A stretch of 45,240 nt of DNA from Nitrospirota bacterium (GTDB lineage: Bacteria > Nitrospirota > UBA9217). The DNA is taken from assembly GCA_035516965.1 (NCBI GenBank), contig DATIZR010000030.1:1-45240 (forward strand). Reading direction: 5' to 3'. Below, in pieces: positions 18,946-36,248 of this stretch. Both the position numbers and the translations under genes were made by a program. The notes below the pieces were generated by a model that had not been told where the DNA came from, did not search any database, and saw nothing but the letters and a program-made list of their open reading frames with translations. Numbering within the stretch: position 1 is the first letter of the stretch; the number at the start of each line of letters is the position of its first letter.

Positions 18946-19683
18946 GTGGGATTTTCTCGCATGCGATTGCTAAGTGTTACGGAAGGCACAGCCGGGGAGC
19001 AGGCCCTTTCATCACCCCTCTGTCTGCATCGTCCGCCGCGGGTACTTGCCCTGTTGTTCCTCGTTTATTCTCTTTTTATTCTTTCTCCTGTTTCCGCTGA
19101 CACATCCGATGACGATATTGAAGGAGATCTCCAGAAGGACCTCGGTAGGAGCAAGATCGTCGCACACAGCGGCAAGGCCGATCTCACACAGGGGATTGCA
19201 GCGCTGGCGCAGCTGTCGCGACTCAGGACTGTCGCGGTACGGATTCCTGCAACATATCTTCTGCCCGAAGAACGGTTTACACTGCAGGAAAAAAACACGT
19301 ATCTCCACGGCTTGTCGGCAGTCGACCAAGACCGCGCCGTGTCGGATGGCTACCGCAAGGCGCTCAGAGATTATTTGAGTCTTGTCAAAAGCCATTTCCC
19401 CATGGACGATCCTTCCATCAACGCAAAACCTCCCGTTAATGTTCTCAACATCCCTGCCGATACCATCTGTCTGAAAAAGACTGACACTCTCATCATCGGT
19501 AGTCTCCTGAATATACTTCTTAATGGGGCCTTGGAGCCGGCCGGATCTCCAGGCATTTTGGCTACCCGTCAAGTCGGCTACAAAACCATCAATATATCGC
19601 AGCAGAATCAAAATTTGAACATACATCATGCTATCCGGAAGATGGGGAGGACAAGATGGGGGACCATACCCAACGTCGCTTAA
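18946..19683 (+). CDS. Secreted hypothetical protein ahead of the RCC1-repeat gene
   Basis: Not recognised. About 245 residues with a signal peptide after a long charged leader (RVLALLFLVYSLFILSPVSADTSD). The mature part begins acidic and contains a possibly helical segment (YRKALRDYLSLVKSHFPMDD). A run of eight G bases (18934-18941) serves as ribosome site; the GTG at 18946 fits best, a TTG at 18943 and an ATG at 18961 are alternatives. It overlaps the start of the giant RCC1 gene by 28 bases, so the two are probably translated from one message. Its role may be linked to that protein. Confidence 0.6.
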   Translation: MGFSRMRLLSVTEGTAGEQALSSPLCLHRPPRVLALLFLVYSLFILSPVSADTSDDDIEGDLQKDLGRSKIVAHSGKADLTQGIAALAQLSRLRTVAVRIPATYLLPEERFTLQEKNTYLHGLSAVDQDRAVSDGYRKALRDYLSLVKSHFPMDDPSINAKPPVNVLNIPADTICLKKTDTLIIGSLLNILLNGALEPAGSPGILATRQVGYKTINISQQNQNLNIHHAIRKMGRTRWGTIPNVA

Positions 19684-22600
19684 TCCAGAGCAGCAACCGC
19701 CTTATACTCTTTTCCATCATCTTCTGGTATTCCGTCCTTCTGAATGTCTTCTTAATGCCAACCGTTTCATGGGCTGCTGGCCAGACTGTTGCTAGCCAAG
19801 TCGGCTATTACTCGATAAACGACGGGACTCTGTTCACGAGATCTTTAGCTCCGACGAGCGCAGCAGTCGGGAACGGTACTGTATCACAAACTACCAAAAC
19901 CGACGGTGCAGTGCAGTTAACCATCAGCAATTCCCCTGGTTATGCCGATTGTGGTTTTTATTTTAATGCCGGGACGCTCGGAGATTTCAGCGGTCTGGAT
20001 ATCGTGACCGCGGCCGGGTCCGATCCGGTGAGTGTCAATATCTGGTTTGACGTGGATAATAACGGCGAGTTCTTTACGTGGAGCGGGAACGTTTTATCGG
20101 GGTTGAGCAGCGACAAGTACATCCTGGGTCCCGCCAGCGTCCAGAATGTGTTGAATGTCGACGCGAACAGCACGTTTAACTCCCTGATCCCCGGCGGCGG
20201 TAATTATACGCTGGCTCAGTTGAAGAACGGTGCAGCACCTGGAATAACGAGCGGTACCAAAATAGCGATCTGGGTCGGCATTGCCACGGGTGGAGGCAGT
20301 CTAAACGCAACGGTCAGCTCTCTTACGGTAAACCCGGCATCGGTGTCGAGTCACGTGGGATATTACTCGACGAACGACGGAACGCAGTTTACACGGTCAC
20401 TTACTCCGGCGACCACGCCGGTAGGGAGCGGCACGGTGTCGCAGACGGTAAACGCGGACGGCTCAGTGAGGCTGACCATCAACAACTCCCCCGGTTACGC
20501 CGACATCGGTTTCTACCTGCCCGTGGGGACGCTCGGAGATTTCAACGGTCTGGATTTTGTAACCTCGACCGGGTCCGATCCGGTAAGCATCAATATCTGG
20601 TTTGACGCGGACAACAACGGCGAGTTCTTCACGTGGAGCGGGAACGTTTTATCGGACTTGGGCAGCGACAAGTACATCCTGGGTCCTGCCAGCGTCCAGA
20701 ACGTGCTGAATGTCGACGCGAACAGCACGTTTAACTCCCTGATCCCCGGTGGCGGCAATTATACGCTGGCTCAGTTGAAAAATGGAGCAGTTGCAGGCAT
20801 AACCAGCGCCACCAAAATAGCAATCTGGGTCGGAATTGCCACGGGTGGGGGCAGTCTCAGCGCCACGGTCAGCTCTCTTTCAATTAATTCGGCCAATGCC
20901 GGACCGCCGTCAATGGCGATCAACCCGGTCGTGACCCCGACTAACCAGTCCAGCCAGACGATCACCGGGACCATGGACGCCGGCGCGACTATAATCGTCA
21001 CCTGTCCGACAGCGTCGATTAATCCAGTGTCCTACCCGACGACCACGACCTGGCAGGCCATGCTTACGAACATGACCGAGGGGAGCAACGCCATAAGTGT
21101 AACAGCCACAAACCAGGCAGGGAACTCGGACCCGGTGGTAACAGCGATTGTGCTCGACGCCACGCCTCCGGTAACGACGGCCACGCCGCCAGGAGGTGTC
21201 TATCCTCCCGGCATCTCAGTAACGCTCGTATCAAGCGAAACAGCCACGATCTACTTTACGACCGATGGCACTACGCCTACGACGGGTTCCCCGGTCTATA
21301 CGGTGCCTTTCAATTTCTTGGCCTCGACGATACTCAAGTATTTCGCCATAGACAGGGCTGGCAACAGCGAGACGGTGAAGACGGCAGCGTATGTGATTAA
21401 TACCGTGCCGCCTGTGAGAAGCATTGCGATCAACACTGGCGCGGCATATACGAACAGCCAAGCGGTAACCCTCGCACTCAGTTGTTCAAACGTGTCGAGC
21501 CCGTGCGCCCAGATGGCATTCAGCACTGACAATCTATCATGGACACCGTTGGAAGCGTATGCTCAAACCAGGACATGGCAGCTCTCGTCTGGAGACGGGC
21601 AGAAGAATATATATGTGAAATATATAGACACTAATAGCAATACGTCTGTAACAAGCGCAGCAATCATACTTGATACTGAGCCGCCGCTGACGGGGAAAAT
21701 GCCGAAATTGTCAAAACTCTCGGCGGGTGATGCTCATTCGGTGGCTATCGCCGCGAACGGCGCTTTGTGGGTCTGGGGGATGAACGACGAAGGAGAACTC
21801 GGCGACGGAACGTATGCGCCAGACTCCTATCCCGAACAGATCGGCACGGACAAAGCCTGGAGTTCCGTCTCAGCCGGCTTGAGCAGCACTCTGGCCCTGA
21901 AAAACGACGGCACGCTGTGGGCGTGGGGAGATAATTCATACGGTCAATTGGGGGATGGGACAACGGATGCGAAATACGCTCTCGTTTCGATCGGCACGGG
22001 CAGCGATTGGCAAATGATTTCTACGAGCGGACAGCACAGCGTGGCCATCAAAAGGGATGGGACTTTGTGGGCATGGGGCTTCAACTCGAACGGACAGTTA
22101 GGCGACGGAAGCCAGGACGATACATATGTCCCGACCCGGATCGGATCAGACAGTGATTGGGTGTCCGTTTCAGCAGGTTTCTATCATACTGTCGCGCTTA
22201 AATCCAACGGCACCCTCTGGGCCTGGGGATACAACGGTGATGGTCAACTGGGAGACGGTACGAGCGACGATGAATATACCCCTGTGCAGATTGGCGGAGA
22301 GACAGATTGGACCGCCATATCGGCAGGCGCCGATCATACTGTGGCCCTTAAGAGCAATGGCACGATATGGGCATGGGGAGCCAATTGTCATGGCCAGCTT
22401 GGAGACGGCACCGGCGGCGGGTGCTGGGACGGAATTTATGATAACAAGTATGAACCGGTTCAAGTAGGAAGTGATACGAACTGGGTTTCAGTCTCTTCGC
22501 AATACTACGACACCATGGCGCTCAAATCCAATGGCAGCTTGTGGGCTTGGGGAGCAAATTGGAACGGCCAGCTAGGAGACGGGACAACTGACGATCAACA

Positions 22601-25600
22601 TACTCCTGTTCAGATCGGTACGGGGAATACTTGGGTCGCCGTCGCTCCGGGAGTAAGCCACAGCCTTGCGCTATCCGCTGATGGGTCCCTGGTGACATGG
22701 GGATGGAACGGCTACGGACAGCTTGGTGACGGGTCTACAAATGATAGCATAATGCCGCATGTGATAGCTTCGATTCAGGGCTCAGACAACCCATTCGTTA
22801 TTAATGATTGGGATTATATGACGAGCAACGCCTCCGTCAGGCTCACGATGAACGCATGGGATATAACAAGCGGAGTGGCCTTCATGCGGTTCAGCAACGA
22901 CGGGTCAACGTGGTCCGATCCCGAACCGTATGCAGCGACCAGGAACTGGACCCTGAGCGCCGGAGACGGCGTAAAGACCATGTACGCAATGTTCCAGGAT
23001 GCCGCAGGGAACTGGTCGGCTGCCTACAGCAACTGGATTGTTCTCGAATCCGGACCGCCGGTTGTGACTATTAAGACACCTAGCGCTGGTTTTACGACCA
23101 GTAATACGTTCGTGTTGAATTACAGCGTCAGCCAGGATACTTGGGACACCGTGTTTTTGGACGGAGTTGAAACGGACTTTGGCAATGGCGATCTCATTGG
23201 CCCCTTGGATATCGGGACGCATACATTACATATTGATGCAGAGAACGATTTTGATACAGTTGGCTCCGCTGAGGTCACCTTTAGTATCGTTAATACGCCC
23301 ATGACAGTCAACATCACTTCACCAACAGCCGGGATAATTACTGTTAACAACCCGTTGCTCACATATTCCGTGAACTATGGCACAGTAACGGTATTGGTGG
23401 ATGGTTCACCCGTAAATACGGCCTCAGGGGATCATCTGAATCCCTTGACGGAAGGGCCCCATACAATACAGGTTGTGTCTACCGATGCTGCTGCTCAAAC
23501 TGTTTCCAGTGCCGTATCCGTCACAGTCGTATCGCAGCCGACATTTGGATCGGCAGGGCTCTCATTTGTACATCTTGCCGCAGGAAACAACGAGGCGATA
23601 GCGGTTACTGCAGATGGTAATCTTTGGCAGTGGGGCGCGGTCTTTGTCGGCGGTGGAGAGGTGCCTTGGGTGCCTATGGCTTGGCCCAAGGGAATAGTGA
23701 CCAATCATTCCTGGGCGACTGTAGCAGCGGGTGTCACGAGTAATCTCGCGCTGAAAACCGACGGCTCACTATGGGCCTGGGGAAGCAACGACTTTGGGCA
23801 GTTGGGTGACGGTACCGATACCAACTATACCGTTCCCATTCGCATCGGCACGGCAAACGACTGGAAAGTGATTGCAACGGGCGGATTCCACAGCCTTGCT
23901 ATCAAAAAAGACGGCACCTTATGGGCATGGGGACTCAACTCCTACGGTGAGTTGGGCGACAGTACCGACAACTGGAGATATGCACCGGTAAAGATCGGCA
24001 ATGATAAGGATTGGGTGGCGGTAGCCGCTGGATATTATCACAGCGTGGCGCTTAAGTCGGACGGTACTTTATGGGCTTGGGGCGCCAATTGGGACGGGGA
24101 GCTGGGAGACGGTTCGGGAGAAGATCAGTCTGTTCCCGTGCAGGTTAACGGCGATCAAGACTGGGCGATGGTCACTGCCGGTGCTTATCACACGGTAGCC
24201 ATCAAACGCGACGGAACCTTGTGGACATGGGGTGCGAATTGGAACGGCCAACTGGGTGATGGAACCACGGACAGTCGTCCTGCGACGGAATGGATAGAGC
24301 GAAACGCGACGTGGAAGGCAGTTTCGGCCGGGCTTGCCTATACTGTTGCAATCAAGAGCGACGGAACATTATGGGCATGGGGGGGGAATTCAAACGGGCA
24401 ATTAGGCGACGGGACCACGGATGACAAGTATGCGCCTGTGCCGATAGGCTCTGATAATACATGGTCGTCGATCGAAGCAGGAGACAAATTCACGTTGGCA
24501 ATGAAGGCAGACGGTACGTTATGGTCTTGGGGTTTGAACAACTACGGACAGTTGGGCGATGGGACCACCCAGTCTTCGAGCGTGCCTCATTCGTCAAGCA
24601 ATGCCCTTACTCTGAACAATACTATCACCATCAATGAGGGAGCCTATGCTACAAACAACGTAAATGTTGTGCTGAAAATGAATGTCTGGGACGTCTATGG
24701 ACCTGATTTTATCGCTTTTATGAAATTCAGTAACGACGGCGCCACTTGGACTGCTCAGGAGCCGTACGGAATATTCAAAGACTGGATGATAACCTCTGGA
24801 GACGGGGAAAAGACGGTGTACGCCATGTTCCAGGACATCGGCGGCAACTGGTCTGCGCCATTCCGAGCGACTATTCTTCTCGATACAACGCCACCCGTGG
24901 TGACGATACTGTCCCCTGCCGCGGGCCACACGAACAACAATATGCCCTTATTGCGGTATACCGTATCCGATGGAACTGTGGTCGTCTATCTTGACAGCAA
25001 CGGAACCCAAAAATTGTCAGGAGGAGTTCTTGATCCTCAGCCTACAGGCACTCACACGGTGCGGGTGGAGGCAACTGATGCCGCGGGCAATGTTGGGTCT
25101 GCGGAAGTTAGCTTCACGATTGATCCCATCTCGTCCGGACAGGGCAGCTACCTGTTCTCCGATGTGGCCATCAGCAGCAACACGCTGAATACGGCTGCCT
25201 CGGAACAGAGCAGCATCTTCTTTACGATAAACGGACCGAGCACTGTCGCCCTCAAGATCATCCCTGAGAAACTGGGTCCGAATGGGGCGCCCGTGTATGA
25301 GATGTCACAGGTATGTCCGGCTGCCGGTCCCTATCTTTTCACTTGGGATGGACACGACGGCCAGGGGAATATCGTGCCCGATGAGGCGTATCTGTATGTC
25401 TTAGTGGCTTCAGACGGATCAAACACAGTTCTCTATAATCCGCCGGTACCGACGGGAACCGGTAATATAAGCTGTTCTCAAGGTGAAGGCTATGATCCCT
25501 ACCGGAACGAGCCCTTGACCGTTAGTTACAGTGTTTCTCAGCCGGCAAGGGTGAATCTTAGCATTAACTGGTCAGGAAGTGTATTCAAGGTGCTGACCGG

Positions 25601-26072
25601 TGTTCCGAGGGCTGCAAACAGCTATTCTTTTGACTGGAACGGAAGAAGTCCGGAGGGAAGGATCCTTGCCGGAGGAACAGCAACGGCAGTATGCGAGGTT
25701 GCATCGCTTCTGGGAGAGAACGTGATTATCGCGAGCGGCAATACCCCGTTTGTGTCACAACTGAAGACAGATCCGTATGGCATTCAGCTTTCGTATGGCG
25801 AATTCACTCGGATAAGTTATGCATTATCCCGCGATGCGAATATTTCAATCCAGTTAATTTCTCCTTGGGGTTCTGCTGTCAATATACTGAACGGAGAACT
25901 TCAGTCTGCCGGAGTTCATATCGTTCAGTGGAACGGGATTGACCCATCGGATGCATCAGGGAAAAAACTGCAGGTCTTGACAGAGGGGGATTATACGGTT
26001 TCTGTTCAAGCTGTGAATCTGGAAACAGGTGCGAGTTCGAATGCAAAGGGCGTGCTCAAGATATTGAATTAA
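19656..26072 (+). CDS. Giant secreted protein with two RCC1 propellers and FlgD-like C-terminus
   Basis: A 2138-residue exported protein. After a signal peptide (LILFSIIFWYSVLLNVFLMPTVSWAAG) come two near-identical tandem modules of about 180 residues (about 45-225 and 230-415; VGYYS-NDGT-FTRSL start, GNYTLAQLKNGA end). Bacterial Ig-like and chitobiase-C-terminal-like segments follow (IYFTTDGTTPTTGSPVYT, about 506-580). Then seven RCC1-type repeats (about 688-1033) of the form 'HSVALKSDGTLWAWGxNxxGQLGDGT', Ig-like domains, a second set of seven repeats (about 1307-1645), more Ig-like modules, and a C-terminal FlgD/T9SS-like fold (FTWDGHDGQGN, YSFDWNGRSPEG, VQWNGIDPSD). Seven repeats make one complete RCC1 propeller, so it should carry two. 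A surface adhesion or binding role is likely but unproven. The ggggagg ribosome site supports the ATG at 19656. Confidence 0.88.
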   Translation: MGDHTQRRLIQSSNRLILFSIIFWYSVLLNVFLMPTVSWAAGQTVASQVGYYSINDGTLFTRSLAPTSAAVGNGTVSQTTKTDGAVQLTISNSPGYADCGFYFNAGTLGDFSGLDIVTAAGSDPVSVNIWFDVDNNGEFFTWSGNVLSGLSSDKYILGPASVQNVLNVDANSTFNSLIPGGGNYTLAQLKNGAAPGITSGTKIAIWVGIATGGGSLNATVSSLTVNPASVSSHVGYYSTNDGTQFTRSLTPATTPVGSGTVSQTVNADGSVRLTINNSPGYADIGFYLPVGTLGDFNGLDFVTSTGSDPVSINIWFDADNNGEFFTWSGNVLSDLGSDKYILGPASVQNVLNVDANSTFNSLIPGGGNYTLAQLKNGAVAGITSATKIAIWVGIATGGGSLSATVSSLSINSANAGPPSMAINPVVTPTNQSSQTITGTMDAGATIIVTCPTASINPVSYPTTTTWQAMLTNMTEGSNAISVTATNQAGNSDPVVTAIVLDATPPVTTATPPGGVYPPGISVTLVSSETATIYFTTDGTTPTTGSPVYTVPFNFLASTILKYFAIDRAGNSETVKTAAYVINTVPPVRSIAINTGAAYTNSQAVTLALSCSNVSSPCAQMAFSTDNLSWTPLEAYAQTRTWQLSSGDGQKNIYVKYIDTNSNTSVTSAAIILDTEPPLTGKMPKLSKLSAGDAHSVAIAANGALWVWGMNDEGELGDGTYAPDSYPEQIGTDKAWSSVSAGLSSTLALKNDGTLWAWGDNSYGQLGDGTTDAKYALVSIGTGSDWQMISTSGQHSVAIKRDGTLWAWGFNSNGQLGDGSQDDTYVPTRIGSDSDWVSVSAGFYHTVALKSNGTLWAWGYNGDGQLGDGTSDDEYTPVQIGGETDWTAISAGADHTVALKSNGTIWAWGANCHGQLGDGTGGGCWDGIYDNKYEPVQVGSDTNWVSVSSQYYDTMALKSNGSLWAWGANWNGQLGDGTTDDQHTPVQIGTGNTWVAVAPGVSHSLALSADGSLVTWGWNGYGQLGDGSTNDSIMPHVIASIQGSDNPFVINDWDYMTSNASVRLTMNAWDITSGVAFMRFSNDGSTWSDPEPYAATRNWTLSAGDGVKTMYAMFQDAAGNWSAAYSNWIVLESGPPVVTIKTPSAGFTTSNTFVLNYSVSQDTWDTVFLDGVETDFGNGDLIGPLDIGTHTLHIDAENDFDTVGSAEVTFSIVNTPMTVNITSPTAGIITVNNPLLTYSVNYGTVTVLVDGSPVNTASGDHLNPLTEGPHTIQVVSTDAAAQTVSSAVSVTVVSQPTFGSAGLSFVHLAAGNNEAIAVTADGNLWQWGAVFVGGGEVPWVPMAWPKGIVTNHSWATVAAGVTSNLALKTDGSLWAWGSNDFGQLGDGTDTNYTVPIRIGTANDWKVIATGGFHSLAIKKDGTLWAWGLNSYGELGDSTDNWRYAPVKIGNDKDWVAVAAGYYHSVALKSDGTLWAWGANWDGELGDGSGEDQSVPVQVNGDQDWAMVTAGAYHTVAIKRDGTLWTWGANWNGQLGDGTTDSRPATEWIERNATWKAVSAGLAYTVAIKSDGTLWAWGGNSNGQLGDGTTDDKYAPVPIGSDNTWSSIEAGDKFTLAMKADGTLWSWGLNNYGQLGDGTTQSSSVPHSSSNALTLNNTITINEGAYATNNVNVVLKMNVWDVYGPDFIAFMKFSNDGATWTAQEPYGIFKDWMITSGDGEKTVYAMFQDIGGNWSAPFRATILLDTTPPVVTILSPAAGHTNNNMPLLRYTVSDGTVVVYLDSNGTQKLSGGVLDPQPTGTHTVRVEATDAAGNVGSAEVSFTIDPISSGQGSYLFSDVAISSNTLNTAASEQSSIFFTINGPSTVALKIIPEKLGPNGAPVYEMSQVCPAAGPYLFTWDGHDGQGNIVPDEAYLYVLVASDGSNTVLYNPPVPTGTGNISCSQGEGYDPYRNEPLTVSYSVSQPARVNLSINWSGSVFKVLTGVPRAANSYSFDWNGRSPEGRILAGGTATAVCEVASLLGENVIIASGNTPFVSQLKTDPYGIQLSYGEFTRISYALSRDANISIQLISPWGSAVNILNGELQSAGVHIVQWNGIDPSDASGKKLQVLTEGDYTVSVQAVNLETGASSNAKGVLKILN

Positions 26073-26187: not shown

Positions 26188-27576
26188 GTGAAAATAAAAG
26201 CGGTTATTATAATGATAAGTACATTGCTTGCCGCCATAGTTTTGATATTCATACCCGCAGAAGTTCGTGCTGTAACCGAATGCTGTGCCGATTATTGGTG
26301 CGGAGTTAGAGATCGCAATGTATGGGCTGGAGGAGAAACATGGACTCTACCTGGCTATGACCCGTGCATTCCGGGGTATCAATGCTATTGGCAAAAATAT
26401 GCAGTCGGCGGATATTCGCTAAATGTATTAGAAACAAAAGTATTGACGTCGGGTGACGAAAGGTTGGATGTCGTTCATGCCAATAGGACATACACATTCC
26501 CAACCGATCATCACGCATATTCTATTGTGCTTTTATGGGGTCTGAATTGGTGGCCAGGATATGACTACGGGCAAGGACCACTTGTATTTCCAGACCTTTC
26601 GTATCCTGGATCATTTCCCGCATGTATAGACAGCACTATTCCTGCCGAAGCCGTCGATATCATTTGGTCTTGTGTAGCAAATATTCCAGATGGAATATTT
26701 TATCCATGGTTTGTTGATGAAGCTTTTGCAAGTTGTGGGGTATATGCAGTTGTTCCAATATATAATTGTCAAGATGGAGAAACAATGTCATGCTATGATG
26801 GGATAGGCGGTCTCGGCCAAGGTATTTGTAAAAGCGGTATAAAAACGTGTTCAAATCACGAGTGGGATGGGCCATGTGTAGGGCAGGTACTACCGCAGCT
26901 AGATTCATGCGATTTAGAGTTAAGTTGTGGGGTGATGGGCTCAAATTGTGAGTGCTTCAACGGAGAAACTAAGCCATGCTATTACGGGCCTGATTCGACA
27001 CGAGGTAAGGGCATCTGTCATGATGGGACCCAGACGTGTATAGGCGGGAGGTGGGACCCTACCTGCAATGGAGAAGTCTTACCAGAAGCAGAACAATGTG
27101 ACAATCTGGATCATAATTGTAATGGTCTGATTGCGGATGGGTTTGAATGCAAACCCGGCGATACAAAACACTGCTACGAAGGACCTGGTGGAACAGAGGG
27201 CAGGGGGATCTGCCGAGGTGGAACTCAGTCATGCATGAACTGCCAATGGGACCCTACCTGCATTGGAGAAGTCCTGCCTGAAGAGGAACAGTGTGACGAC
27301 AAGGATCATAACTGCAATGGCGAGACTGCGGATGGGTTTGAATGCAAACCGGGCGAGACGAGGCATTGCTACACCGGACCGGATGGAACAGAAAACAAGG
27401 GGATCTGCCGCGGCGGCAGCCAAGCATGTAACTTTTGCCAATGGGACACGGATTGTAAAGGGCAGGTATTGCCTGAGGATACCGAGAAATGCGATGGAAA
27501 AAATCACTTATGCGCGGAGAAGCCGGATACCGGCTGCGATCCTTGTTTAGATAACACTGGAAAGAGTACAACATAA
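26188..27576 (+). CDS. Secreted cysteine-rich repeat protein (MopE-like motif)
   Basis: A 462-residue exported protein with 41 cysteines. Signal peptide: VIIMISTLLAAIVLIFIPAEVRA. The N-terminal 180 residues are unique and rich in Trp, Tyr and Pro. The C-terminal half is built of about four repeats of roughly 60 residues with the pattern CY-GP-GT-G-GIC-GTQ-C-W-P-C-GEVLPE-EQCD-DHNCNG-ADGFECKPG. The CD-x-x-DHNCNG word resembles the MopE-type 'putative metal-binding' repeats of deltaproteobacterial surface proteins. The GTG at 26188 follows gggaagg. More AT-rich than the core genes. It lies between the RCC1 and RHS genes in the same direction; the many cysteines would need a disulfide system, and two such enzymes lie 5-8 kb downstream. 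Confidence 0.78.
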   Translation: MKIKAVIIMISTLLAAIVLIFIPAEVRAVTECCADYWCGVRDRNVWAGGETWTLPGYDPCIPGYQCYWQKYAVGGYSLNVLETKVLTSGDERLDVVHANRTYTFPTDHHAYSIVLLWGLNWWPGYDYGQGPLVFPDLSYPGSFPACIDSTIPAEAVDIIWSCVANIPDGIFYPWFVDEAFASCGVYAVVPIYNCQDGETMSCYDGIGGLGQGICKSGIKTCSNHEWDGPCVGQVLPQLDSCDLELSCGVMGSNCECFNGETKPCYYGPDSTRGKGICHDGTQTCIGGRWDPTCNGEVLPEAEQCDNLDHNCNGLIADGFECKPGDTKHCYEGPGGTEGRGICRGGTQSCMNCQWDPTCIGEVLPEEEQCDDKDHNCNGETADGFECKPGETRHCYTGPDGTENKGICRGGSQACNFCQWDTDCKGQVLPEDTEKCDGKNHLCAEKPDTGCDPCLDNTGKSTT

Positions 27577-27634
27577 TAATAGTAACGAGCAATGACTGGT
27601 GGAAAATAATGATTATAGCGATAGTGGGGGGAGT

Positions 27635-30600
27635 ATGTCAGGGTCTCTAAAAAAGAACCAGAAAATAAGATATCATGGACTTGCACCATTAATTCTTATC
27701 TTGTTTTTGTTGACTTGTTATGCGTCTCCTCTCTTTGCAGACGAGATTATTGATAGGTACGAAGAAACCAGTTGCTCTGACGGTTCATCAGACGGCAGCG
27801 GCAAAAGCATGGCAGGAAAGCCCGTAAATCTTTTTACCGGGTCCGAAACAATGACAAAGACCGATCTTTCCGTCGGCAACCTCTACCCCATAACCATCCA
27901 GCGTCAGTATAACAGCACATCGGCCTATGACAGTTCGCTTGGTTATGGTTGGTCCCTGAATTACGACAAGAGGATCTACACCTATCCCGACAACTCGGTC
28001 ATTGTGCGTAAGGATTGCGGACGGAAATTGCGGTTCATCCGGAGTGGCTCGGGTTTTACTTCACCATCTGGGGAATATGGTTCTATCGTTCAGAATATAG
28101 ATGGTACGTACACCTATACCGATATTAACGGATCAAGGGAAATTTACGATTTGCACGGCAGGATCGCATATGTTGTGAGCCCAAAAGGCAACTCCCTTGT
28201 CTTTACTTACGGGTCCGACGTTCGCGGCCCCATGACAGGCCTCTCCCTCTTCAACCTGGACCAGACGAATCCTCAAATCGTATCCTATGACTACCGGCTG
28301 AGTATGATCGAGGAACGAGACAGTACGAGTAATCCCACCGGCAACAGGGTCTCGTTTTCCTATGATCCGTCCACAGGAAGATTGAACGGCCTCTGGGATA
28401 ATACCGGCCGTTCCGTTATCTACACCCACGACACTATCGGCAACCTGAACGGGATCAGCGGTCCTTCAACAGTCGCCACTTACGGCTACAACAGCCCGGT
28501 CAACCGGCACAGTCTTACCGACATTGACGAAGGCCAGGGTACTTACATCAATGCCTACGACAATCAAGGACGGGTCACTAAACAAACACACGGCACAGGC
28601 GTGATCGATATCGCGTACTGGCCGAATCGGACGGTCAACATTACCACTACGGTGACGGGCCCCGATGGAACAACCCTTAATACCCAGACCCGGACGGTGG
28701 AATTCAGCGGCTTGGGAATGGTGAACAAAAATACCGATACTTTTGGCAACGTTACCAACTACATTCGGGATTCGCAATCATCCAAGCTTCTTCGCGAAGA
28801 ATACTGGGAGAATACGGGAACGGTCGATTCCCCGAACCTCGTGCTCAGAACCGCAAATAACTACACTTATGACAGCAAGGGCAACATGCTGACCAAGACC
28901 GAGGCTCAGGGCACGCCGCAGGAAAGGACCACAACGTACACATACCATCCCACGTTCAACGGTGTACTGACAACGACCGTCAAAAGCGTAGTAGATCCCA
29001 ACCAGAACAAGGTTACGACCAATACTTACGATGACACGACTGGCAATCTCCTCACAACCAACGAGGCCGGACTTCTGGGAGACGGGACGCCCTATTCTTA
29101 CACAACAGCATATACGTACGATTCAAACGGTCGCTTGGCGACCATCGACGGGCCGCGAACCGACGTCCAGGACATAACGAACTATTACTATGATTCGAGT
29201 ACCGGATACCTCACCAGCATGACCCAGCCCCTCGCGGGAACGACCACCTACGCCAACTTTGACGCCCTCGGCGAACCGCAGACCGTAACCGACCCGAACG
29301 GAAACAGCACGACCTATACCTATGACACAATGGGCAGAGTGCTGACCGTCAAAGCGCCGGGAGATACGAGCGCAACGCAGTATTTCTATACATCCGGCGG
29401 ATGCCCATCCTGCGGCGCGAGCAGAATTGACCATATAACGCTGCCTGAAGGGAACACGATTAATTATCACTACGATGATGGTTTAGGCAACCTCACTTCG
29501 ATCAGTGACAGCCTCGGCAACAGCATCAACTATACCTACGACTCGGAAGGGAACAAGCTGAAGGAAGACATTAGAGATTCGAGTGGAAGCCTCCAGAAGA
29601 CGCTCAGTTATCAGTACGATGTGTTCAATCGTCTTGCCCAGATCATAAACCCCGATTCTACCTTCACTCAGATTGGATATGACTCTAGGGGCAATCGCGC
29701 TAGTACGCTGAACCCAAATGGGAACAGCACGTCCTATCAATACGACGCTTTAAACAGACTCACTACCGTGATCCAGCCCGGCAGCGTCACGACGTCCTAT
29801 AGCTACAACTCGAACAACAATTTAACCTCTGTAACCGACGCCAATAACAATGCAACAACCTACAAGTACGACGACCAAGGAAGGGTTTATCAGGTCATTT
29901 CGCCGGATACCGGGAATACAACTTACCAATATGACCCTGCAGGAAATCTAACGAGGAAAACCGATGCGAAGGGTATCTCCATCGCCTACATATACGACGC
30001 AGCGAATCGGCTGACAAAGATCGACTTCCAGACAGATACCGACATCATTTATGTCTACGATACGTGCCTGAACGGCAAGGGCAGGCTGTGCTCAATGTCA
30101 GATGCCTCAGGTACGACTACCTACGTGTACTCACCCAAAGGACAAGTTAATAAAGAAACGAAGACAATCGATAGCATTCAGCACGTCACTCAATATACTT
30201 ACGATCAGAACGGCAACGTTAAGACCATGACCTATCCCTCCGGCAAGGTGATCACATACAACTACACGAACGATAATGCAGTGAGTGTCCTGAACGGCGT
30301 GACCAATCTCGCAACGAACATCAACTACAAACCTTTCGGCGGGATGAGTTCGATCACGTATGGAAATGGATTGGCTGGCAGCATCGGCTATGACAATCAC
30401 TACCGTATCGTTTCCATGGCTACCGGGACCCTCCAAAATCTGATCTATGCCGACGACGCAAACGGGAACATCACCGGCGTAACGAACAACCTCGATGCGA
30501 CAAAGAATAAGACATTTACGTATGATGCCCTTGATCGTCTTGCGAGCGCTAATGGCTCATGGGGCGCACTCGGCTGGACCTATGACGGGGTAGGGAACAG

Positions 30601-31645
30601 GCAGGCCGAAAATTCGAGTAGCTATGCCTATGCAGCGAATACGAATAAATTGACTGATGCCAATGCAATTTCCTTCGGATACGATAGTAATGGGAATACG
30701 ACAACCGAAGGCTCGAAACAATACATTTACAATCAGAATCAAAGGTTGATCCAGGTAAACAATGGCGGCACAACTGCTTATTACACTTACAACGGCAATG
30801 GCCAGCGGGTGAAGAAGATCGTGAACGGAACAACGACCATCTTCCATTACAATCAAAACGGCCAGATCATCGCAGAATCAAATAGCTCTGGAACTATTAC
30901 CGCGGAATATGTATACTTGAATGGTCAGCCGCTCGCGAAGATCGGAGGAGTAAACACTTACTATTACCACAACGATCATCTCGGGGCCCCGAACAAGATG
31001 ACGGACAGTTCTGGAACCGTCGTATGGTCTGCAGACTACAAACCCTTCGGTGAAGCGACTGTCACCGTATCAACAATCACGAACAACCTGAGATTTCCGG
31101 GGCAGTATTTCGATACGGAGACTGGGAATCACTACAATTACTTCAGAGATTACAACCCTTCTCTTGGCAGATATATCCAAGCTGATCCAATTGGCATAAG
31201 GAAAGGGGAAAATCATATATATGCCTATGCTAGCAGCAGTCCTCTCAGGCGAGTTGATCCTCAAGGGCTGCTAAGTACAGTTGAAACTGCATTTTATAAG
31301 GCGCTGGCCGCGGGGAGTTTGGCTGAAGCTGCCATGATACTTGAGGAAGCAGGAAGTTGTATTAACGCTGAAACTAGAGCAGCGATGTCAGAAGCGCTCG
31401 CACTGGCTAACAAACTTCATCATATATTTGATAATGTAGATCATAATTTAGACCCCCTTATTAACATATTCGGCAGTGAATCACAAGCATACTCAGCGAT
31501 TGTAGAGGCGACTACAAATGTCATTAACGAATTACATCTTACTGGTATCTTTGAAGTTGTGGTAAATGTCGGCGGACAGAACGTTACAGTGCGTGGAAAT
31601 GTTGTCAATGGCGTTGCACAAATTGGAACGGCATTTATAAAGTAA
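27635..31645 (+). CDS. RHS-repeat polymorphic-toxin-type protein
   Basis: About 1336 residues. A signal peptide (HGLAPLILILFLLTCYASPLFADE) is followed by the DUF6531-type start (GKPVNLFTGSETMTKTDL) and a long array of RHS/YD repeats (for example YDSEGNKLKE, YDALNRLTTVIQPG), which form a hollow shell round the C-terminal payload. The RHS core ends at YFRDYNPSLGRYIQADPIGI and VDPQGL (near residue 1208). The last roughly 128 residues are unlike the core and visibly AT-richer, containing HHIFDNVDHNLDPLINIFGS and VVVNVGGQNVTVRG: a variable tip, probably a toxin, with histidines that could be catalytic. The family of the tip is not recognised. The ATG at 27635 follows gggggag; a GTG at 27599 is an alternative. 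The immunity candidate follows 16 bases later. Confidence 0.88.
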   Translation: MSGSLKKNQKIRYHGLAPLILILFLLTCYASPLFADEIIDRYEETSCSDGSSDGSGKSMAGKPVNLFTGSETMTKTDLSVGNLYPITIQRQYNSTSAYDSSLGYGWSLNYDKRIYTYPDNSVIVRKDCGRKLRFIRSGSGFTSPSGEYGSIVQNIDGTYTYTDINGSREIYDLHGRIAYVVSPKGNSLVFTYGSDVRGPMTGLSLFNLDQTNPQIVSYDYRLSMIEERDSTSNPTGNRVSFSYDPSTGRLNGLWDNTGRSVIYTHDTIGNLNGISGPSTVATYGYNSPVNRHSLTDIDEGQGTYINAYDNQGRVTKQTHGTGVIDIAYWPNRTVNITTTVTGPDGTTLNTQTRTVEFSGLGMVNKNTDTFGNVTNYIRDSQSSKLLREEYWENTGTVDSPNLVLRTANNYTYDSKGNMLTKTEAQGTPQERTTTYTYHPTFNGVLTTTVKSVVDPNQNKVTTNTYDDTTGNLLTTNEAGLLGDGTPYSYTTAYTYDSNGRLATIDGPRTDVQDITNYYYDSSTGYLTSMTQPLAGTTTYANFDALGEPQTVTDPNGNSTTYTYDTMGRVLTVKAPGDTSATQYFYTSGGCPSCGASRIDHITLPEGNTINYHYDDGLGNLTSISDSLGNSINYTYDSEGNKLKEDIRDSSGSLQKTLSYQYDVFNRLAQIINPDSTFTQIGYDSRGNRASTLNPNGNSTSYQYDALNRLTTVIQPGSVTTSYSYNSNNNLTSVTDANNNATTYKYDDQGRVYQVISPDTGNTTYQYDPAGNLTRKTDAKGISIAYIYDAANRLTKIDFQTDTDIIYVYDTCLNGKGRLCSMSDASGTTTYVYSPKGQVNKETKTIDSIQHVTQYTYDQNGNVKTMTYPSGKVITYNYTNDNAVSVLNGVTNLATNINYKPFGGMSSITYGNGLAGSIGYDNHYRIVSMATGTLQNLIYADDANGNITGVTNNLDATKNKTFTYDALDRLASANGSWGALGWTYDGVGNRQAENSSSYAYAANTNKLTDANAISFGYDSNGNTTTEGSKQYIYNQNQRLIQVNNGGTTAYYTYNGNGQRVKKIVNGTTTIFHYNQNGQIIAESNSSGTITAEYVYLNGQPLAKIGGVNTYYYHNDHLGAPNKMTDSSGTVVWSADYKPFGEATVTVSTITNNLRFPGQYFDTETGNHYNYFRDYNPSLGRYIQADPIGIRKGENHIYAYASSSPLRRVDPQGLLSTVETAFYKALAAGSLAEAAMILEEAGSCINAETRAAMSEALALANKLHHIFDNVDHNLDPLINIFGSESQAYSAIVEATTNVINELHLTGIFEVVVNVGGQNVTVRGNVVNGVAQIGTAFIK

Positions 31646-31661
31646 GCCAAGAGGTTAAAAA

Positions 31662-32042
31662 ATGGATAAAGAGATGAGCTCACTTGAAAAAGATGTAATG
31701 CTCCATCTTCTAGCAGGCAAAAATAATACATTATCCGTGCTAAGGCAACAATATTTGTCTGCGGTTGTCAAATCAAAAGAATATACAGGTGCTGGTTTTT
31801 TTATATACTTTACTATACCTAAAGACGCTCCAAAGCTTTCAAGCGAACAATCATTTGATATTGGTGATGTGGCTGCCCGTATAGATGGACTTCAGAATGG
31901 TGCAGGTTTTATTTTGTATATTAATAAAGGTACGATACGAATGCTTGAAGGGTATACCTTTGGCGAAGAGATATGGCCAAAATCAGTTGAACATTATGAG
32001 CTCTATTACACTACTAACGGAAAACGAAATTTACCCTTTTAA
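31662..32042 (+). CDS. Presumed immunity protein of the RHS toxin tip
   Basis: A 126-residue cytosolic protein with no signal peptide: EKDVMLHLLAGKNNTLSVLRQQYLSAVV, then EYTGAGFFIYFTIP, DIGDVAARIDGLQNGAGFILYINKGTIRMLEGYTFGEEIWP and a C-terminal YELYY. Proteins of this shape ('LL-G-x-x-x-L--LR-Q ... TG-GFF--F--P ... MLEGYT') are common orphan-looking genes next to toxin and RHS loci. The family function is not known to me with certainty. Position directly after the RHS gene and the low GC content support an immunity role (inference). Confidence 0.65.
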   Translation: MDKEMSSLEKDVMLHLLAGKNNTLSVLRQQYLSAVVKSKEYTGAGFFIYFTIPKDAPKLSSEQSFDIGDVAARIDGLQNGAGFILYINKGTIRMLEGYTFGEEIWPKSVEHYELYYTTNGKRNLPF

Positions 32043-32216: not shown

Positions 32217-33068
32217 ATGGATACTAAGAAAATTCTATCGTCTATATTTATTCTGACTGCTTTTCTGTTTCAGCTCGTGCACCCCTGCTATGCCGATGTC
32301 GAATGGAACATAAAAAAGCAGCTCAGTCTCGATGCCGCCCCCATTGATGTTGCTTCCTCACCGGACGGCCAATGGATATACGTCCTTGCTTCGGGAGAGA
32401 TCCTCGTCTATTCCGTGCCGGAAGATAAAATCGTCAATCGTATTCCCGTGGATAAATCATTCGACAGGATAGCGCATTCCGCGCCGGACAACACGCTCAT
32501 CGTCACGAGTTCTTCGGGAAAGACCCTCAAGCTTATCCAGTTGGACGTTGTTTACAAGTTCGACCTTGCAGGCCTTCCCTTCAAAGGCCCGGAGAAGGCC
32601 CCGGTCACGATCGCTGTGTTCAGCGACTACCAATGACCCTATTGCGCCCGGCTTGAGCCGGCACTCCAGCAGTTGCTGGAGAAATACCCCAGAGACGTCA
32701 AGCTCGTGTTCAAGAACTTACCGCTACCCATGCATCAGTTCGCAAGGAAAGCTTCCCTTGCCGCCCTGGCCGCGAACCGTCAGGGGAAATTCTGGGAATA
32801 TCACCAAAAATTGTTTGAGGCAGGTTCGTCCCTGAGCGATGCGAAGATGCAGGATATCGCCAAAGAACTGGGTCTCGACCTTGAGAAGTTCAACAAGGAT
32901 CTAAAAGACCCGGCCATCGAAAATATCATTAACCGGGATATAAAAGATGGCAGCCAGGCAGACGTGCGCGGAACGCCCACGATGTTCATGAACGGAAAGC
33001 TTGTTAAAATTCGCTCTCTCGAAGGTTTTCAGCAAATTGTCGATGCGGAGCTGAAGAAAAAGAAATAG
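32217..33068 (+). CDS. Selenocysteine DsbA-like thiol oxidoreductase, copy 1 (UGA read through)
   Basis: An exported thioredoxin-fold oxidoreductase of 283 residues, if the in-frame TGA at 32634-32636 is read as selenocysteine. Signal peptide: ILSSIFILTAFLFQLVHPCYA. Residues 25-125 look like a short beta-propeller-like module (DVASSPDGQWIYVLASGEILVYSVPEDKIVNRI). The DsbA-like domain follows: FSDYQ-U140-P-Y-C143, where relatives have FSDYQCPYC, so Sec replaces the first active-site cysteine. Then come the helical insertion (LPMHQFARKASLAALAANRQGKFWEYHQKLF) and the cis-proline loop RGTPTMF (Pro254). Frame and homology continue unbroken past the TGA, and a second copy at 35397 keeps the same TGA. 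Ribosome site taaaggag is 8 bases before the ATG. A standard gene caller would report two fragments, 32217-32636 and 32673-33068. Confidence 0.88.
32637..32681 (+). promoter_or_regulatory. Candidate bacterial SECIS hairpins after the UGA (copy 1)
   Basis: Two hairpins follow the UGA. Hairpin 1 is ccggc-ttga-gccgg (32648-32661), its loop 16 bases after the UGA. Hairpin 2 is ctccagc-agtt-gctggag (32664-32681), its loop 34 bases after the UGA and containing GU as SelB-bound loops do. Both distances fall in the range used by bacterial SECIS elements. Which one binds SelB cannot be decided by eye. Confidence 0.55.
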
Positions 33069-33103: not shown

Positions 33104-34131
33104 ATTGGGTCAGGCTTAGATAATTAGTTATTGGCGCCGCCCTCCTCTTCTGATAATCTCTGTTCATGCCACGGAAGCCCCGGATAGAATTCGAAGGCGC
33201 GTTTTACCATGTCATCACCCGCGGCAACCAGAGACAGAAGATATTCAAATCTCTCGCCGATTACCAGAAATACCTTCAACTGCTCACCATCTACAAGAAC
33301 CGCTATCACTGCTCTATCTATGCCTATATCCTCATGGGCAACCACGTCCACATCCTGATCGAAACGAAGGACACGCCGCTTTCGAAGGTCTTCCAGGGGA
33401 TCAACCAGAGCTATACCGTGTATTTCAATAAGAAGTATCATACCGTCGGCCACCTCTTTCAAGGCAGGTATAAAGCCGTGCTCTGTGACCGGGAGAACTA
33501 TCTCCTGGCACTTCTCAAGTACATCCATTATAACCCCGTCCGGGCCAAGATCGCAGAGACGCTTGCCGACCATCCCTGGAGCAGCCACCATGCTTACACC
33601 GGAAAGAGCAACCTGCTGGGTCTTGTCGACACGGAGCAGGTCCTTCGTCTGTTCTCGGAGAGGAAGGGAAGGGCGCGCAAACTGTATCGAGCGTTTATCG
33701 AGGAAGCAGGCGGACTCAAGAAAGACGAGGTGTATGCCACGATCGACCAGCGTGTCCAGGGAAGCGATGAATTTGCCGAAGAAGTGCTGAGAAAATACGA
33801 AAAGACACCGGTAAAACCGTGGAGAAAAGCGTACACGTTGGACCGGATAGCAGAAGGGGTCACGGAACTCTATGGGATAAGCCCACAGTTGCTTCGTTCT
33901 TCGGGAAGAACGAGACCGTTGTCGTCTGGTCGCTGTTTGTTCAGTCTCGCGGCAAAGGATCAGGGGTATAAGGGCGTCGAGATCGCAGTATACCTTGAGA
34001 AAGAGCCGCCGTCGATATCTGCATATGACCGGAAGCGGGACCTCTTCACCGGAGACCTGACGGCATTGCAGGGGCACCTCACGCGCGGGAATAAAAACTA
34101 ATAAACTTAGCCTGACCCCATTGGTGCTCCC
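33104..34131 (+). mobile_element. RAYT/REP-type element with imperfect inverted ends
   Basis: The transposase gene at 33166 is bordered by related sequences in opposite orientation: left 33104-33132 (attgggtcaggcttag...) and right 34093-34122 (...aacttagcctgacccc). Both contain 'cttag/ctaag-cctgaccc' and an 'actaat' word, as REP sequences flanking REP-associated transposases do. The right end is repeated as 31-bp units (see 34101-34162). The element begins about 10 bp after the end of the duplicated selenoprotein segment. Confidence 0.6.
33166..34101 (+). CDS. REP-associated tyrosine (Y1/HUH) transposase
   Basis: A 311-residue single-strand transposase of the RAYT/TnpA-REP type, related to IS200/IS605 TnpA. 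Start MPRKPRIEFEGAFYHVITRGNQRQKIF is diagnostic. The metal-binding HUH motif is GNHVHILIE (His60, His62); the nucleophile tyrosine lies in the YIHYNPVRAK segment (Tyr119 or Tyr122). LFQGRYKAVL lies between them. An extra C-terminal domain ends with a DnaA-like helix-turn-helix (GVEIAVYLEKEPPSISAYDRKRD). Such proteins act on REP hairpins and usually do not move themselves. The gene looks intact. Confidence 0.93.
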   Translation: MPRKPRIEFEGAFYHVITRGNQRQKIFKSLADYQKYLQLLTIYKNRYHCSIYAYILMGNHVHILIETKDTPLSKVFQGINQSYTVYFNKKYHTVGHLFQGRYKAVLCDRENYLLALLKYIHYNPVRAKIAETLADHPWSSHHAYTGKSNLLGLVDTEQVLRLFSERKGRARKLYRAFIEEAGGLKKDEVYATIDQRVQGSDEFAEEVLRKYEKTPVKPWRKAYTLDRIAEGVTELYGISPQLLRSSGRTRPLSSGRCLFSLAAKDQGYKGVEIAVYLEKEPPSISAYDRKRDLFTGDLTALQGHLTRGNKN

Positions 34132-34162
34132 ATAAACTTAGCCTGACCCCATTGGTGCTCCC
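34101..34162. repeat. Tandem 31-bp repeats at the right end of the RAYT element
   Basis: Two exact units of ataaacttagcctgacccca plus 11 bases (34101-34131 and 34132-34162); a third copy of the first 30 bases stands at 34460-34489 behind the transposase remnant. The unit contains the cttagcctgaccc word shared with the element's left end. Confidence 0.8.
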
Positions 34163-34460
34163 GGGCCCTGTGAAGCCATGGAAGAAGGAGCACACCCTGG
34201 ACCAGATCGCGGAAGGAGTCGCGAAACTCTATGAGTTACATTCGCAGGCGCTGCGTTCCCGGGAAAGGACCAGGTCATTATCGGCCGGACGGTGTCTCTT
34301 CACGCTTGCAGCAAAAGCGCATGGGTATAGAGGGATCGAGATTGCAGGATATCTGGATAAAGAGCCGCCGTCGATATCTGCATATGACCGGAAGCGGGAC
34401 CTCTTCACCGGAGACCTGACGGCATTGCAGGGGCACCTCACGCGCGGGAATAAAAACTAA
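34163..34460 (+). pseudogene. C-terminal remnant of a second RAYT transposase
   Basis: This stretch encodes only the last third of a RAYT protein (PVKPWKKEHTLDQIAEGVAKLYE onward), matching residues about 215-311 of the intact transposase. The catalytic HUH/Y1 domain is missing and no start is present. The first 200 bp differ at many positions from the intact gene, but the last 131 bp (34359-34489) are identical to 34000-34130, ending with the 30-bp repeat unit. It is probably a leftover of an older insertion whose tail was homogenised. Confidence 0.8.
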
Positions 34461-34618
34461 TAAACTTAGCCTGACCCCATTGGTGCTCCAGACTAAATGC
34501 ACGTCGCGTATCAACGTCCCGTATGTTCCCCCCAAAATCAAACCGCAAGACCTGAACACTCCCCGCCAGAGGCGCGTGTCTTGAGTCCTGCTTTTTTGTC
34601 CTGCATGCTATTTTGTGC

Positions 34619-34959: not shown

Positions 34960-35337
34960 ATGGAAATCAAACCTATAAAAACAAAGAGAGACTACGAAGC
35001 CGCTCTGAAAGAAACCGAGCGCCTTTTTGATGCTAAGCCTGGCACCGCTGATGGCGATCGTCTCGAGGTCCTGACAGCGCTGATAAGTGTCTATGAAGAA
35101 AAGCATCATGCCGTCCCCCTTCCGAATCCCATCGATGCCATTCAGTATTACATGGAAAGCAGGGGACTGACGCGTCGCGACCTGGAAAAATTTCTCGGAA
35201 GCCGTGCGCGCGTTTCCGAAGTGCTCAACCGAAAGCGAGCGATCACGATGGAGATGATCCGTAATCTGCACAGAGGGTTGGGTATTCCGGCGGAAGTTTT
35301 GATTCAACCCTATCGCACAGTCAAGAAGGCGGCATGA
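34960..35337 (+). CDS. higA: HigA-type antitoxin (XRE helix-turn-helix)
   Basis: A 125-residue antitoxin that binds HigB and represses the higBA promoter. N-terminal MEIKPIKTKRDYEAALKETERLFDA and ADGDRLEVLTALISVYEEKHHAVPLPNPIDAIQYYME are family hallmarks; the helix-turn-helix is GLTRRDLEKFLGSRARVSEVLNRKRAITMEMIRNLHRGLGIPAEVLIQ. The ATG at 34960 follows gtgagg. It is 60 bp upstream of the second selenoprotein gene. Confidence 0.93.
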   Translation: MEIKPIKTKRDYEAALKETERLFDAKPGTADGDRLEVLTALISVYEEKHHAVPLPNPIDAIQYYMESRGLTRRDLEKFLGSRARVSEVLNRKRAITMEMIRNLHRGLGIPAEVLIQPYRTVKKAA

Positions 35338-35396
35338 AGAGGAGACATGAAAATATGAGCAGGTGGACGTGGTTCCTATCAAAAGGAGTGAATGCC

Positions 35397-36248
35397 ATGA
35401 GCAATAAAAAAAACATAGCGCTTGTATTTCTTCTGGCGGCTTTTCTGTTTCAGTTCGTGAGCCCCTGCTACGCAGATATCGAATGGAACCTCAAAAAGCA
35501 GCTGAGCCTCGAGGCTGCCCCGATTGATGTTGCTTCCTCACCGGACGGTCAATGGATATACGTCCTTGCTTCGGGAGAGATACTTGTCTATTCCGTGCCG
35601 GAAGATAAAATCGTCAATCGTATTCCCGTGGATAAATCATTCGACAGGATAGCGCATTCGGCGCCGGACAACACGCTCATCATCACGAGTTCTTCGGGAA
35701 AAACGCTCAAACTTGTCCAGTTGGACGTAGTGTACAAGTTCGACCTTGCAGGCCTTCCCTTCAAAGGCCCGGAGAAGGCCCCGGTCACGATCGCTGTGTT
35801 CAGCGACTACCAATGACCCTACTGCGCCCGGCTTGAGCCGGCACTCCAGCAGTTGCTGGAGAAATACCCCAGAGACGTCAAGCTCGTGTTCAAGAACTTT
35901 CCGCTACCCATGCATCAGTTCGCAAGGAAAGCTTCCCTTGCCGCCCTGGCCGCGAACCGGCAAGGCAAGTTCTGGGAGTATCACCAGAAGTTGTTTGAGG
36001 CAGGTCCGTCCCTGAACGATGCAAAGATTCAGGACATTGCCAAAGAACTGGGCCTCGATCTCGAGAAGTTCAACAGGGATCTAAAAGACCCGGCCATCGA
36101 AAATATCATTAATCGGGACATAAAAGATGGCAGCCAGGCAGACGTGCGCGGAACGCCCACGATGTTCATGAACGGAAAGCTTGTTAAAATTCGCTCTCTC
36201 GAAGACTTCCAGCAAATTATCGATGCGGAGCTGAAGAAAAAGAAATAG
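35397..36248 (+). CDS. Selenocysteine DsbA-like thiol oxidoreductase, copy 2 (UGA read through)
   Basis: Paralogue of the gene at 32217, again 283 residues, with the in-frame TGA at 35814-35816 as residue 140. Signal peptide: IALVFLLAAFLFQFVSPCYA. The propeller-like N-module, FSDYQ-U-P-Y-C and RGTPTMF are kept. Differences from copy 1 are mostly conservative (for example VHPCYADVEW to VSPCYADIEW, KNLPLP to KNFPLP, SSLSDAKMQ to PSLNDAKIQ). The ATG at 35397 follows aaaaggag with 8-9 bases spacing; in-frame upstream ATGs lack one. Retention of the TGA, with purifying-type changes on both sides, argues that both copies are translated through it. A standard gene caller would report two fragments, 35334-35816 and 35853-36248. 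Confidence 0.88.
35817..35861 (+). promoter_or_regulatory. Candidate bacterial SECIS hairpins after the UGA (copy 2)
   Basis: Same two hairpins as in copy 1: ccggc-ttga-gccgg (35828-35841) and ctccagc-agtt-gctggag (35844-35861). Across this 45-base stretch the two genes differ at one base only, a silent change in the Tyr codon. Confidence 0.55.

What the first reader, a model, noticed from the sequence alone, without database searches (positions are those of the whole stretch)
31250..32042. RHS variable tip and presumed immunity gene of unrecognised type
After the core end at VDPQGL the composition changes and a roughly 128-residue tip begins, with HHIFDNVDHNLD and VVNVGGQNVTVRG; a small cytosolic protein gene follows at once. 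This is the layout of a polymorphic toxin-immunity pair. I could not name the toxin family with confidence. The carrier has a Sec-type signal peptide rather than a PAAR/VgrG context, so delivery differs from T6SS RHS toxins.
Basis: partly seen in the sequence, partly recalled or inferred. Interest (0 to 1): 0.58.

Follow-up and report, generated by a model that had tools for sequence, protein, structure and literature searches.

The report
RHS-borne RNase toxin with immunity gene
A secreted bacterial protein ends in a swappable toxin tip that probably cuts RNA in rival cells, and the next gene encodes a small, so far unnamed protein that probably protects the producer; the same pair occurs in many bacterial phyla.

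Summary
The RHS core of the 1348-aa carrier (27599-31645) ends at VDPQGL. A 124-aa tip (31271-31642) follows, and 16 bp after its stop codon a 126-aa gene begins (31662-32042). Tip and gene are unusually AT-rich. The toxin-immunity reading is strongly supported: a scan with the tip alone gave 22 loci from many phyla, and 21 of 22 carry a relative of the 126-aa gene directly 3'. The pair rides on RHS, filamentous-haemagglutinin, pretoxin-HINT and probably Mu-F carriers. In family relatives the same RHS carrier ends in unrelated tips. The tip can be placed: its last 78 residues form a divergent sister clade of Ntox35 (PF15534), a predicted BECR-fold RNase. The window tip scores below Pfam's cut-off, but two relatives pass it, and a standalone protein is matched by both profiles. 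The predicted Ntox35 active-site residues (two N-terminal histidines, a C-terminal Ser/Thr) are conserved. A confident AlphaFold model aligns, weakly (Z 5.2), with the tRNase CdiA-CT EC3006. The immunity family has no credible Pfam, NCBIfam, PADLOC or PDB match; the 2012 survey lists none for Ntox35. Activity, target, neutralisation and delivery are inferred.

The parts
27599..31270 (+). RHS carrier: signal-peptide-like start, DUF6531, RHS repeats, RHS core ending at VDPQGL
   Evidence: PF20148, 12 stretches of PF05593, PF03527; TIGR03696 1-76 of 76 ending at residue 1224; same carrier with 59-71% identical core and other tips in G048 and G041
31271..31408 (+). Tip residues 1-46: helical linker between RHS core and toxin domain
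   Evidence: three predicted helices; not part of the conserved domain in relatives
31409..31642 (+). Toxin domain (tip residues 47-124), Ntox35-like BECR-type RNase, predicted site K48, H51, H58, R108, T120
   Evidence: relatives in 22 genome loci and Komagataeibacter plasmid; PF15534 link; model pLDDT 95; VIA-align to CdiA-CT EC3006 Z 5.2
31662..32042 (+). Cognate immunity gene, 126 aa, unnamed family
   Evidence: same family directly 3' of the tip in 21 of 22 loci and in the Komagataeibacter plasmid; correlated divergence r 0.78 over 19 pairs; model pLDDT 93.5

Best explanation
This is a polymorphic toxin-immunity cassette on a secreted RHS carrier. The last 78 residues are an RNase of the Barnase-EndoU-Colicin-RelE (BECR) type, a divergent sister clade of Ntox35. 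The RHS shell carries the domain to the outside, it enters a neighbouring cell, and it cleaves RNA there (tRNA most likely), using K48/H51/H58 from the helical part with R108/T120 from the last strands. The small protein made from the next gene stays in the cytosol and binds the toxin domain, probably over its active site, so that the producer and its kin are spared. Shown: the cassette, its conservation and exchange, and the relation to Ntox35. Inferred: secretion, RNase activity, RNA target, neutralisation and mode of entry.
For: Tip-only scan: 22 loci, 21 with the immunity family directly 3'. 199 Planctomycetota genomes: tip in 3, immunity in 8, all 3 among the 8, P 4.3e-5, or 1.1e-3 without the seed genome. 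Correlated divergence r 0.78, 0 of 9,999 permutations. Same carrier with unrelated tips in relatives. Several carrier types: RHS, haemagglutinin repeat, pretoxin HINT. Ntox35: 9 of 20 tips at E<=1; L020 23.7 bits against cut-off 23.6; 3 of 23 genomes over the cut-off, two of them at tip loci, the third a free 91-aa protein that the tip profile also finds at 3e-8. Two N-terminal His (20/20, 18/20) and Ser/Thr 120 (20/20) as described for Ntox35 (PMC3482391). Fold: VIA-align to CdiA-CT EC3006 Z 5.2 over 77 residues.
Against: The window tip itself has no Pfam match at E<=1. Foldseek finds nothing significant (best E 0.58), and Z 3-5 may be only a common arrangement by the tool's own note; the model has three strands where BECR is described with four. 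H58 is R in 2 of 20 and R108 is not R in 5 of 20. K48-F53 were partly fixed by the scan patterns. The immunity family also occurs without this tip. No experiment.
Confidence: 0.8

Rival explanations
1. It is a toxin-immunity pair, but the toxin is not an RNase: a RelE/ParE-like fold put to another use, such as gyrase poisoning, or another nucleic-acid enzyme.
For: ParE2 (8c26) is among the fold rows, Z 3.5; no activity is known for any Ntox35 member in the library searched.
Against: Conserved His/Lys/Thr set as expected of a catalytic RNase site; best domain-wide fold row is a tRNase; Ntox35 is predicted as RNase.
Confidence: 0.14
2. The tip is a structural or decayed RHS end and the next gene has an unrelated role.
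For: A degenerate tip lacking the N-terminal histidines with a frameshifted immunity gene exists in G483 (L062), so decay does happen in this family.
Against: The window copies are open and keep all predicted active-site residues; the pair is conserved on non-RHS carriers and swapped on the same carrier.
Confidence: 0.04
3. The domain acts inside the producer, as a toxin-antitoxin module that happens to be fused to a carrier.
For: A free-standing 91-aa Ntox35-like protein exists in G310.
Against: Here and in several relatives it is the C-terminus of a large carrier, here with a signal-peptide-like start; PADLOC gives no match.
Confidence: 0.05

Closest known systems
Ntox35 (Pfam PF15534), Zhang et al. 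2012, PMC3482391
   Same: Length and layout of the domain, two N-terminal histidines, Ser/Thr in the last strand, RHS carriers; relatives of the window tip pass the Pfam cut-off
   Different: The window tip scores below any threshold; this clade has one dedicated immunity family, none being listed for Ntox35; it also occurs on haemagglutinin-repeat, HINT and perhaps Mu-F carriers
BECR-fold CDI tRNases CdiA-CT EC3006 and Kp342 (PMC9086364)
   Same: Best domain-wide fold row is EC3006 (Z 5.2); K/Y/H/R/T active sites resemble K48/H51/H58/R108/T120
   Different: No sequence similarity detected in PDB; His in place of Tyr; different immunity proteins
Komagataeibacter oboediens pKOB1 haemagglutinin-repeat protein and its 3' gene (NZ_CP117859.1)
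   Same: Homologous toxin domain (31% identity) and homologous immunity gene in the same order
   Different: Haemagglutinin-repeat (two-partner-secretion type) carrier instead of RHS

Membership tests
Polymorphic toxin-immunity system | Large carrier with exchangeable C-terminal tips | tested here: met
   Core 59-71% identical, unrelated tips after the core end in L081, L082, L083
Polymorphic toxin-immunity system | Dedicated small gene directly 3' of the tip, moving with it | tested here: met
   21 of 22 loci; r 0.78
Polymorphic toxin-immunity system | Toxicity of the tip and neutralisation by the 3' gene product | not testable with these tools
   needs expression assay
Ntox35 (PF15534) | Score over Pfam's curated cut-off (23.6 bits) | tested here: not met
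   Window tip no match at E<=1; relatives L020 23.7 bits, G301/L012 tip 25.5 bits pass. Hence filed as sister clade, not as member
Ntox35 (PF15534) | Two N-terminal histidines plus Ser/Thr in the C-terminal strand | tested here: met
   H51, H58, T120 in the window tip; 20/20, 18/20, 20/20 in the alignment
BECR-fold RNases | N-terminal helical segment followed by a four-stranded meander | tested here: inconclusive
   Helices then three strands; Foldseek nothing significant; VIA-align Z 5.2 to 6cp8
BECR-fold RNases | RNase activity | not testable with these tools
   needs biochemistry
T6SS-delivered RHS effectors | PAAR/VgrG context or T6SS in the genome | not tested
   No T6SS family was searched; the carrier itself shows only DUF6531, RHS repeats and RHS core

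The most novel reading that the evidence does not exclude
A cross-phylum clade of Ntox35-like RNase toxins exists with one dedicated, so far unnamed immunity family (about 110-135 aa, two helices then six strands) that has no recognisable relative by sequence or fold; it would be the first immunity family assigned to Ntox35-like toxins.
Probability: 0.65. Interest if true: 0.5.

Novelty: new member of a known kind. Interest (0 to 1): 0.42.

Why it matters
It turns an unnamed RHS tip into a defined toxin clade with candidate catalytic residues and a matching immunity family, so that both can be recognised in genomes of many phyla. Ntox35 was described from sequence in 2012 without an immunity protein, and in the library searched its name appears in that paper only. 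A constant partner gives a ready means to purify, solve and test these toxins.

Tried and rejected
Sequence searches that gave nothing: PDB by single sequence for tip and immunity and by profile (best E 0.34 and 0.23, unrelated proteins); NCBIfam for both families (only chance hits, apart from the RHS core in front of the tip); PADLOC; PHROGs, where weak hits of the tip to tape-measure and of L020 to tail-fibre models were set aside as unrelated; plasmids with the tip; phages with the immunity protein; viral contigs. The weak Ecotin hit of the 126-aa protein (E 0.043, under the cut-off, 1 of 23 members) was rejected.

Structure searches: no fold match for the immunity protein (Foldseek E >= 0.17; best Z 3.1); this does not show a new fold. 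In one search most top rows concern the helical linker 1-47 (Z up to 7.2) and are read as common helix arrangements.

Family PF15534 in 198 genomes of the window's phylum: 2 weak partial matches below cut-off, not used. In 199 Planctomycetota: none, although the tip profile found 3 there; the Pfam model misses most of this clade. In one search six of 14 control genomes ring at E<=1, none over the cut-off, so only matches over the cut-off were used as evidence.

Rows dropped: the broken or truncated tips L021, L022, L024, L025 were left out of the tip alignment A3 (18 of 22 loci used, plus window and L004). From the immunity alignment A4 were left out L009 (frame runs on into other sequence), L021 (none found) and L024 (broken).

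Papers: PMC3482391 read as passages; PMC9086364 as passages; all others seen only as search listings. 'Ntox35' occurs in 1 paper, 'PF15534' and 'toxin type 35' in none.

Full report
What is there. The carrier gene 27599-31645 encodes 1348 residues from a GTG start, with a hydrophobic signal-peptide-like start (by eye), DUF6531, 12 matched stretches of RHS repeat and the RHS core. The core profile ends exactly at VDPQGL (31253-31270; TIGR03696 positions 1-76 of 76). The tip is 124 residues. The 126-aa ORF begins 16 bp after the stop codon. GC3 falls from 0.596 in the core to 0.315 in the tip (0.295 in its last 78 residues) and 0.262 in the 126-aa gene; the DsbA-like gene further on is back at 0.618.

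Relatives. Neither protein has a Pfam or NCBIfam family by single sequence. The 126-aa protein found two plasmid relatives. One of them, on Komagataeibacter oboediens pKOB1, overlaps the end of a gene annotated as a haemagglutinin-repeat protein. The C-terminus of that gene is 31% identical to the window tip over 75 residues. A two-sequence tip alignment then found 22 loci in one scan of the genome collection, with record titles naming Acidobacteria, Bacteroidetes, Planctomycetota, Lentisphaerae, Gammaproteobacteria, Sporomusa, Bacillaceae, Hyphomicrobiales, Spirochaetales and others. In 21 of 22 an immunity-family gene lies directly 3'. The exception, L021, has a truncated tip. L024 has a broken first copy and a second, open copy further on. 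L022 and L025 have broken tips but open immunity genes.

Is the pairing more than chance? The scan used only the tip, so the 3' gene was not selected for. In 199 Planctomycetota genomes searched with both profiles the tip is in 3 and the immunity family in 8, and all 3 tip genomes are among the 8. Fisher P is 4.3e-5, or 1.1e-3 after removing the seed genome. Distances within tips and within immunity proteins correlate over 19 pairs (r 0.78, 0 of 9,999 permutations; r 0.74 after dropping two near-duplicates). The other 5 of the 8 genomes have the immunity family without a recognisable tip in the fetched stretch. Orphans also occur in G053 (L005), in Deinococcus (L003) and beside the L015 cassette (L052). 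Orphan immunity genes are usual in polymorphic systems (general knowledge), but they also mean that the immunity family may have further partners.

Is the tip exchangeable? A search of 14 genomes of the window's family with the core alone found carriers with 59-71% identical cores in G048 and G041. Right after the core end they carry unrelated tips and different 3' genes (L081, L082, L083). Conversely, the toxin domain rides on several carriers: RHS repeats (L016, L017), pretoxin HINT (L012, L021), a Mu-F-like domain slightly under its cut-off (L019), a protein with a dockerin domain (L008) and haemagglutinin repeats (L004). For 10 of the 17 related ORFs scanned no carrier domain was found at E<=1e-4; several of these are cut short by contig ends.

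What is the toxin? Scanning every member of the 20-row tip alignment, PF15534 (Ntox35) is the only family that recurs widely: 9 of 20 members at E<=1, best 7e-5, the next family 2 of 20. The window tip itself does not match. L020 scores 23.7 against a cut-off of 23.6, aligned over 4-74 of 78 positions. Over whole genomes 3 of 23 pass: the tips of L020 and L012, and a 91-aa free-standing protein of G310. The tip profile finds that same free protein at E 3e-8 over its whole length. That links the clade to Ntox35 through intermediates. The 2012 survey describes Ntox35 as a predicted BECR-fold RNase with two N-terminal histidines and a Ser/Thr from the C-terminal strand, and lists no immunity protein for it (PMC3482391, passages). 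In the alignment K48 and H51 are 20 of 20, H58 18 of 20 (R in two), G109 20 of 20, T/S120 20 of 20, R108 15 of 20. The scan patterns covered residues 47-54 and 55-63, so the invariance of K48-F53 is partly built in, while G109 and T/S120 are free of that bias. L058, reached through its immunity gene, keeps K, both H, R and T, with HHVF in place of HHIF.

Structure. From 19 sequences AlphaFold gives pLDDT 95 and pTM 0.82 for the tip: five helices, then strands 92-100, 103-112 and 115-122. Foldseek finds no significant match (best E 0.58), though several weak hits are coronavirus Nsp15 EndoU chains. VIA-align rows that cover the toxin domain include CdiA-CT EC3006 (6cp8, Z 5.2, 77 residues, 3.4 A), CdiA-CT Ykris (5e3e, 4.1), STEC_O31 (5hkq, 3.9), 7m5f (3.7), ParE2 (8c26, 3.5) and RelE (4fxe, 3.2). 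Unrelated rows (4k8l 3.9, 2ret 3.2, 3cfi 3.2) are among them. By the tool's own caution these scores suggest and do not prove the fold. EC3006 and Kp342 cut tRNA-Ile and use K/Y/H/R/T sets (PMC9086364 Table 1, passages) that resemble K48/H51/H58/R108/T120. BECR immunity proteins generally bind the toxin's active site (same paper), which is why I infer occlusion here. The immunity model (pLDDT 93.5; two helices, six strands) has no fold match of note.

Mechanism and confidence. Toxin-immunity cassette: about 0.95. BECR-type RNase of an Ntox35 sister clade: about 0.8. tRNA as the target: about 0.55, resting only on the fold relatives. Delivery from a signal-peptide RHS carrier is inferred; secretion and entry genes were not searched.

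Novelty. The architecture is a known kind. The toxin clade is a sister of a known predicted toxin. The immunity family is without a model in the Pfam, NCBIfam and PADLOC copies searched and is not assigned to Ntox35 in the survey; 'Ntox35' occurs in one paper of the library.

Noticed in passing
window 32217-33068 and 35334-36248 (+): Two DsbA-like genes (88% identical DNA over 300 nt), each with an in-frame TGA where the first Cys of the CxxC motif is expected; the same hairpin lies 12 nt 3' of both TGAs. Probable selenoproteins; machinery not searched.
   Followed up: partly
window 33166-34107 and 34152-34466 (+): REP-type transposase-like ORF (by eye) and a partial copy of its end, 80% identical over 300 nt.
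   Followed up: no
window 19656-26072 (+): 2138-aa protein with RCC1 repeats, FlgD Ig-like and bacterial Ig-like domains, upstream of the RHS gene.
   Followed up: no
window 26188-27576 (+): 462-aa Cys-rich protein with repeated CDxxxHNCNG-like motifs just upstream of the RHS gene.
   Followed up: no
L062 1099-1785 (genome G483): Degenerate tip without the N-terminal histidines next to a frameshifted immunity gene.
   Followed up: no
L005 1267-1686 (-), genome G053, same family as the window's genome: Immunity-family gene (42% identical) without the tip, in a cluster of small unrelated genes; possibly an orphan-immunity array.
   Followed up: no
L068 873-1148 (-), genome G310: Free-standing 91-aa Ntox35-like protein with no immunity-family gene in that genome.
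   Followed up: no
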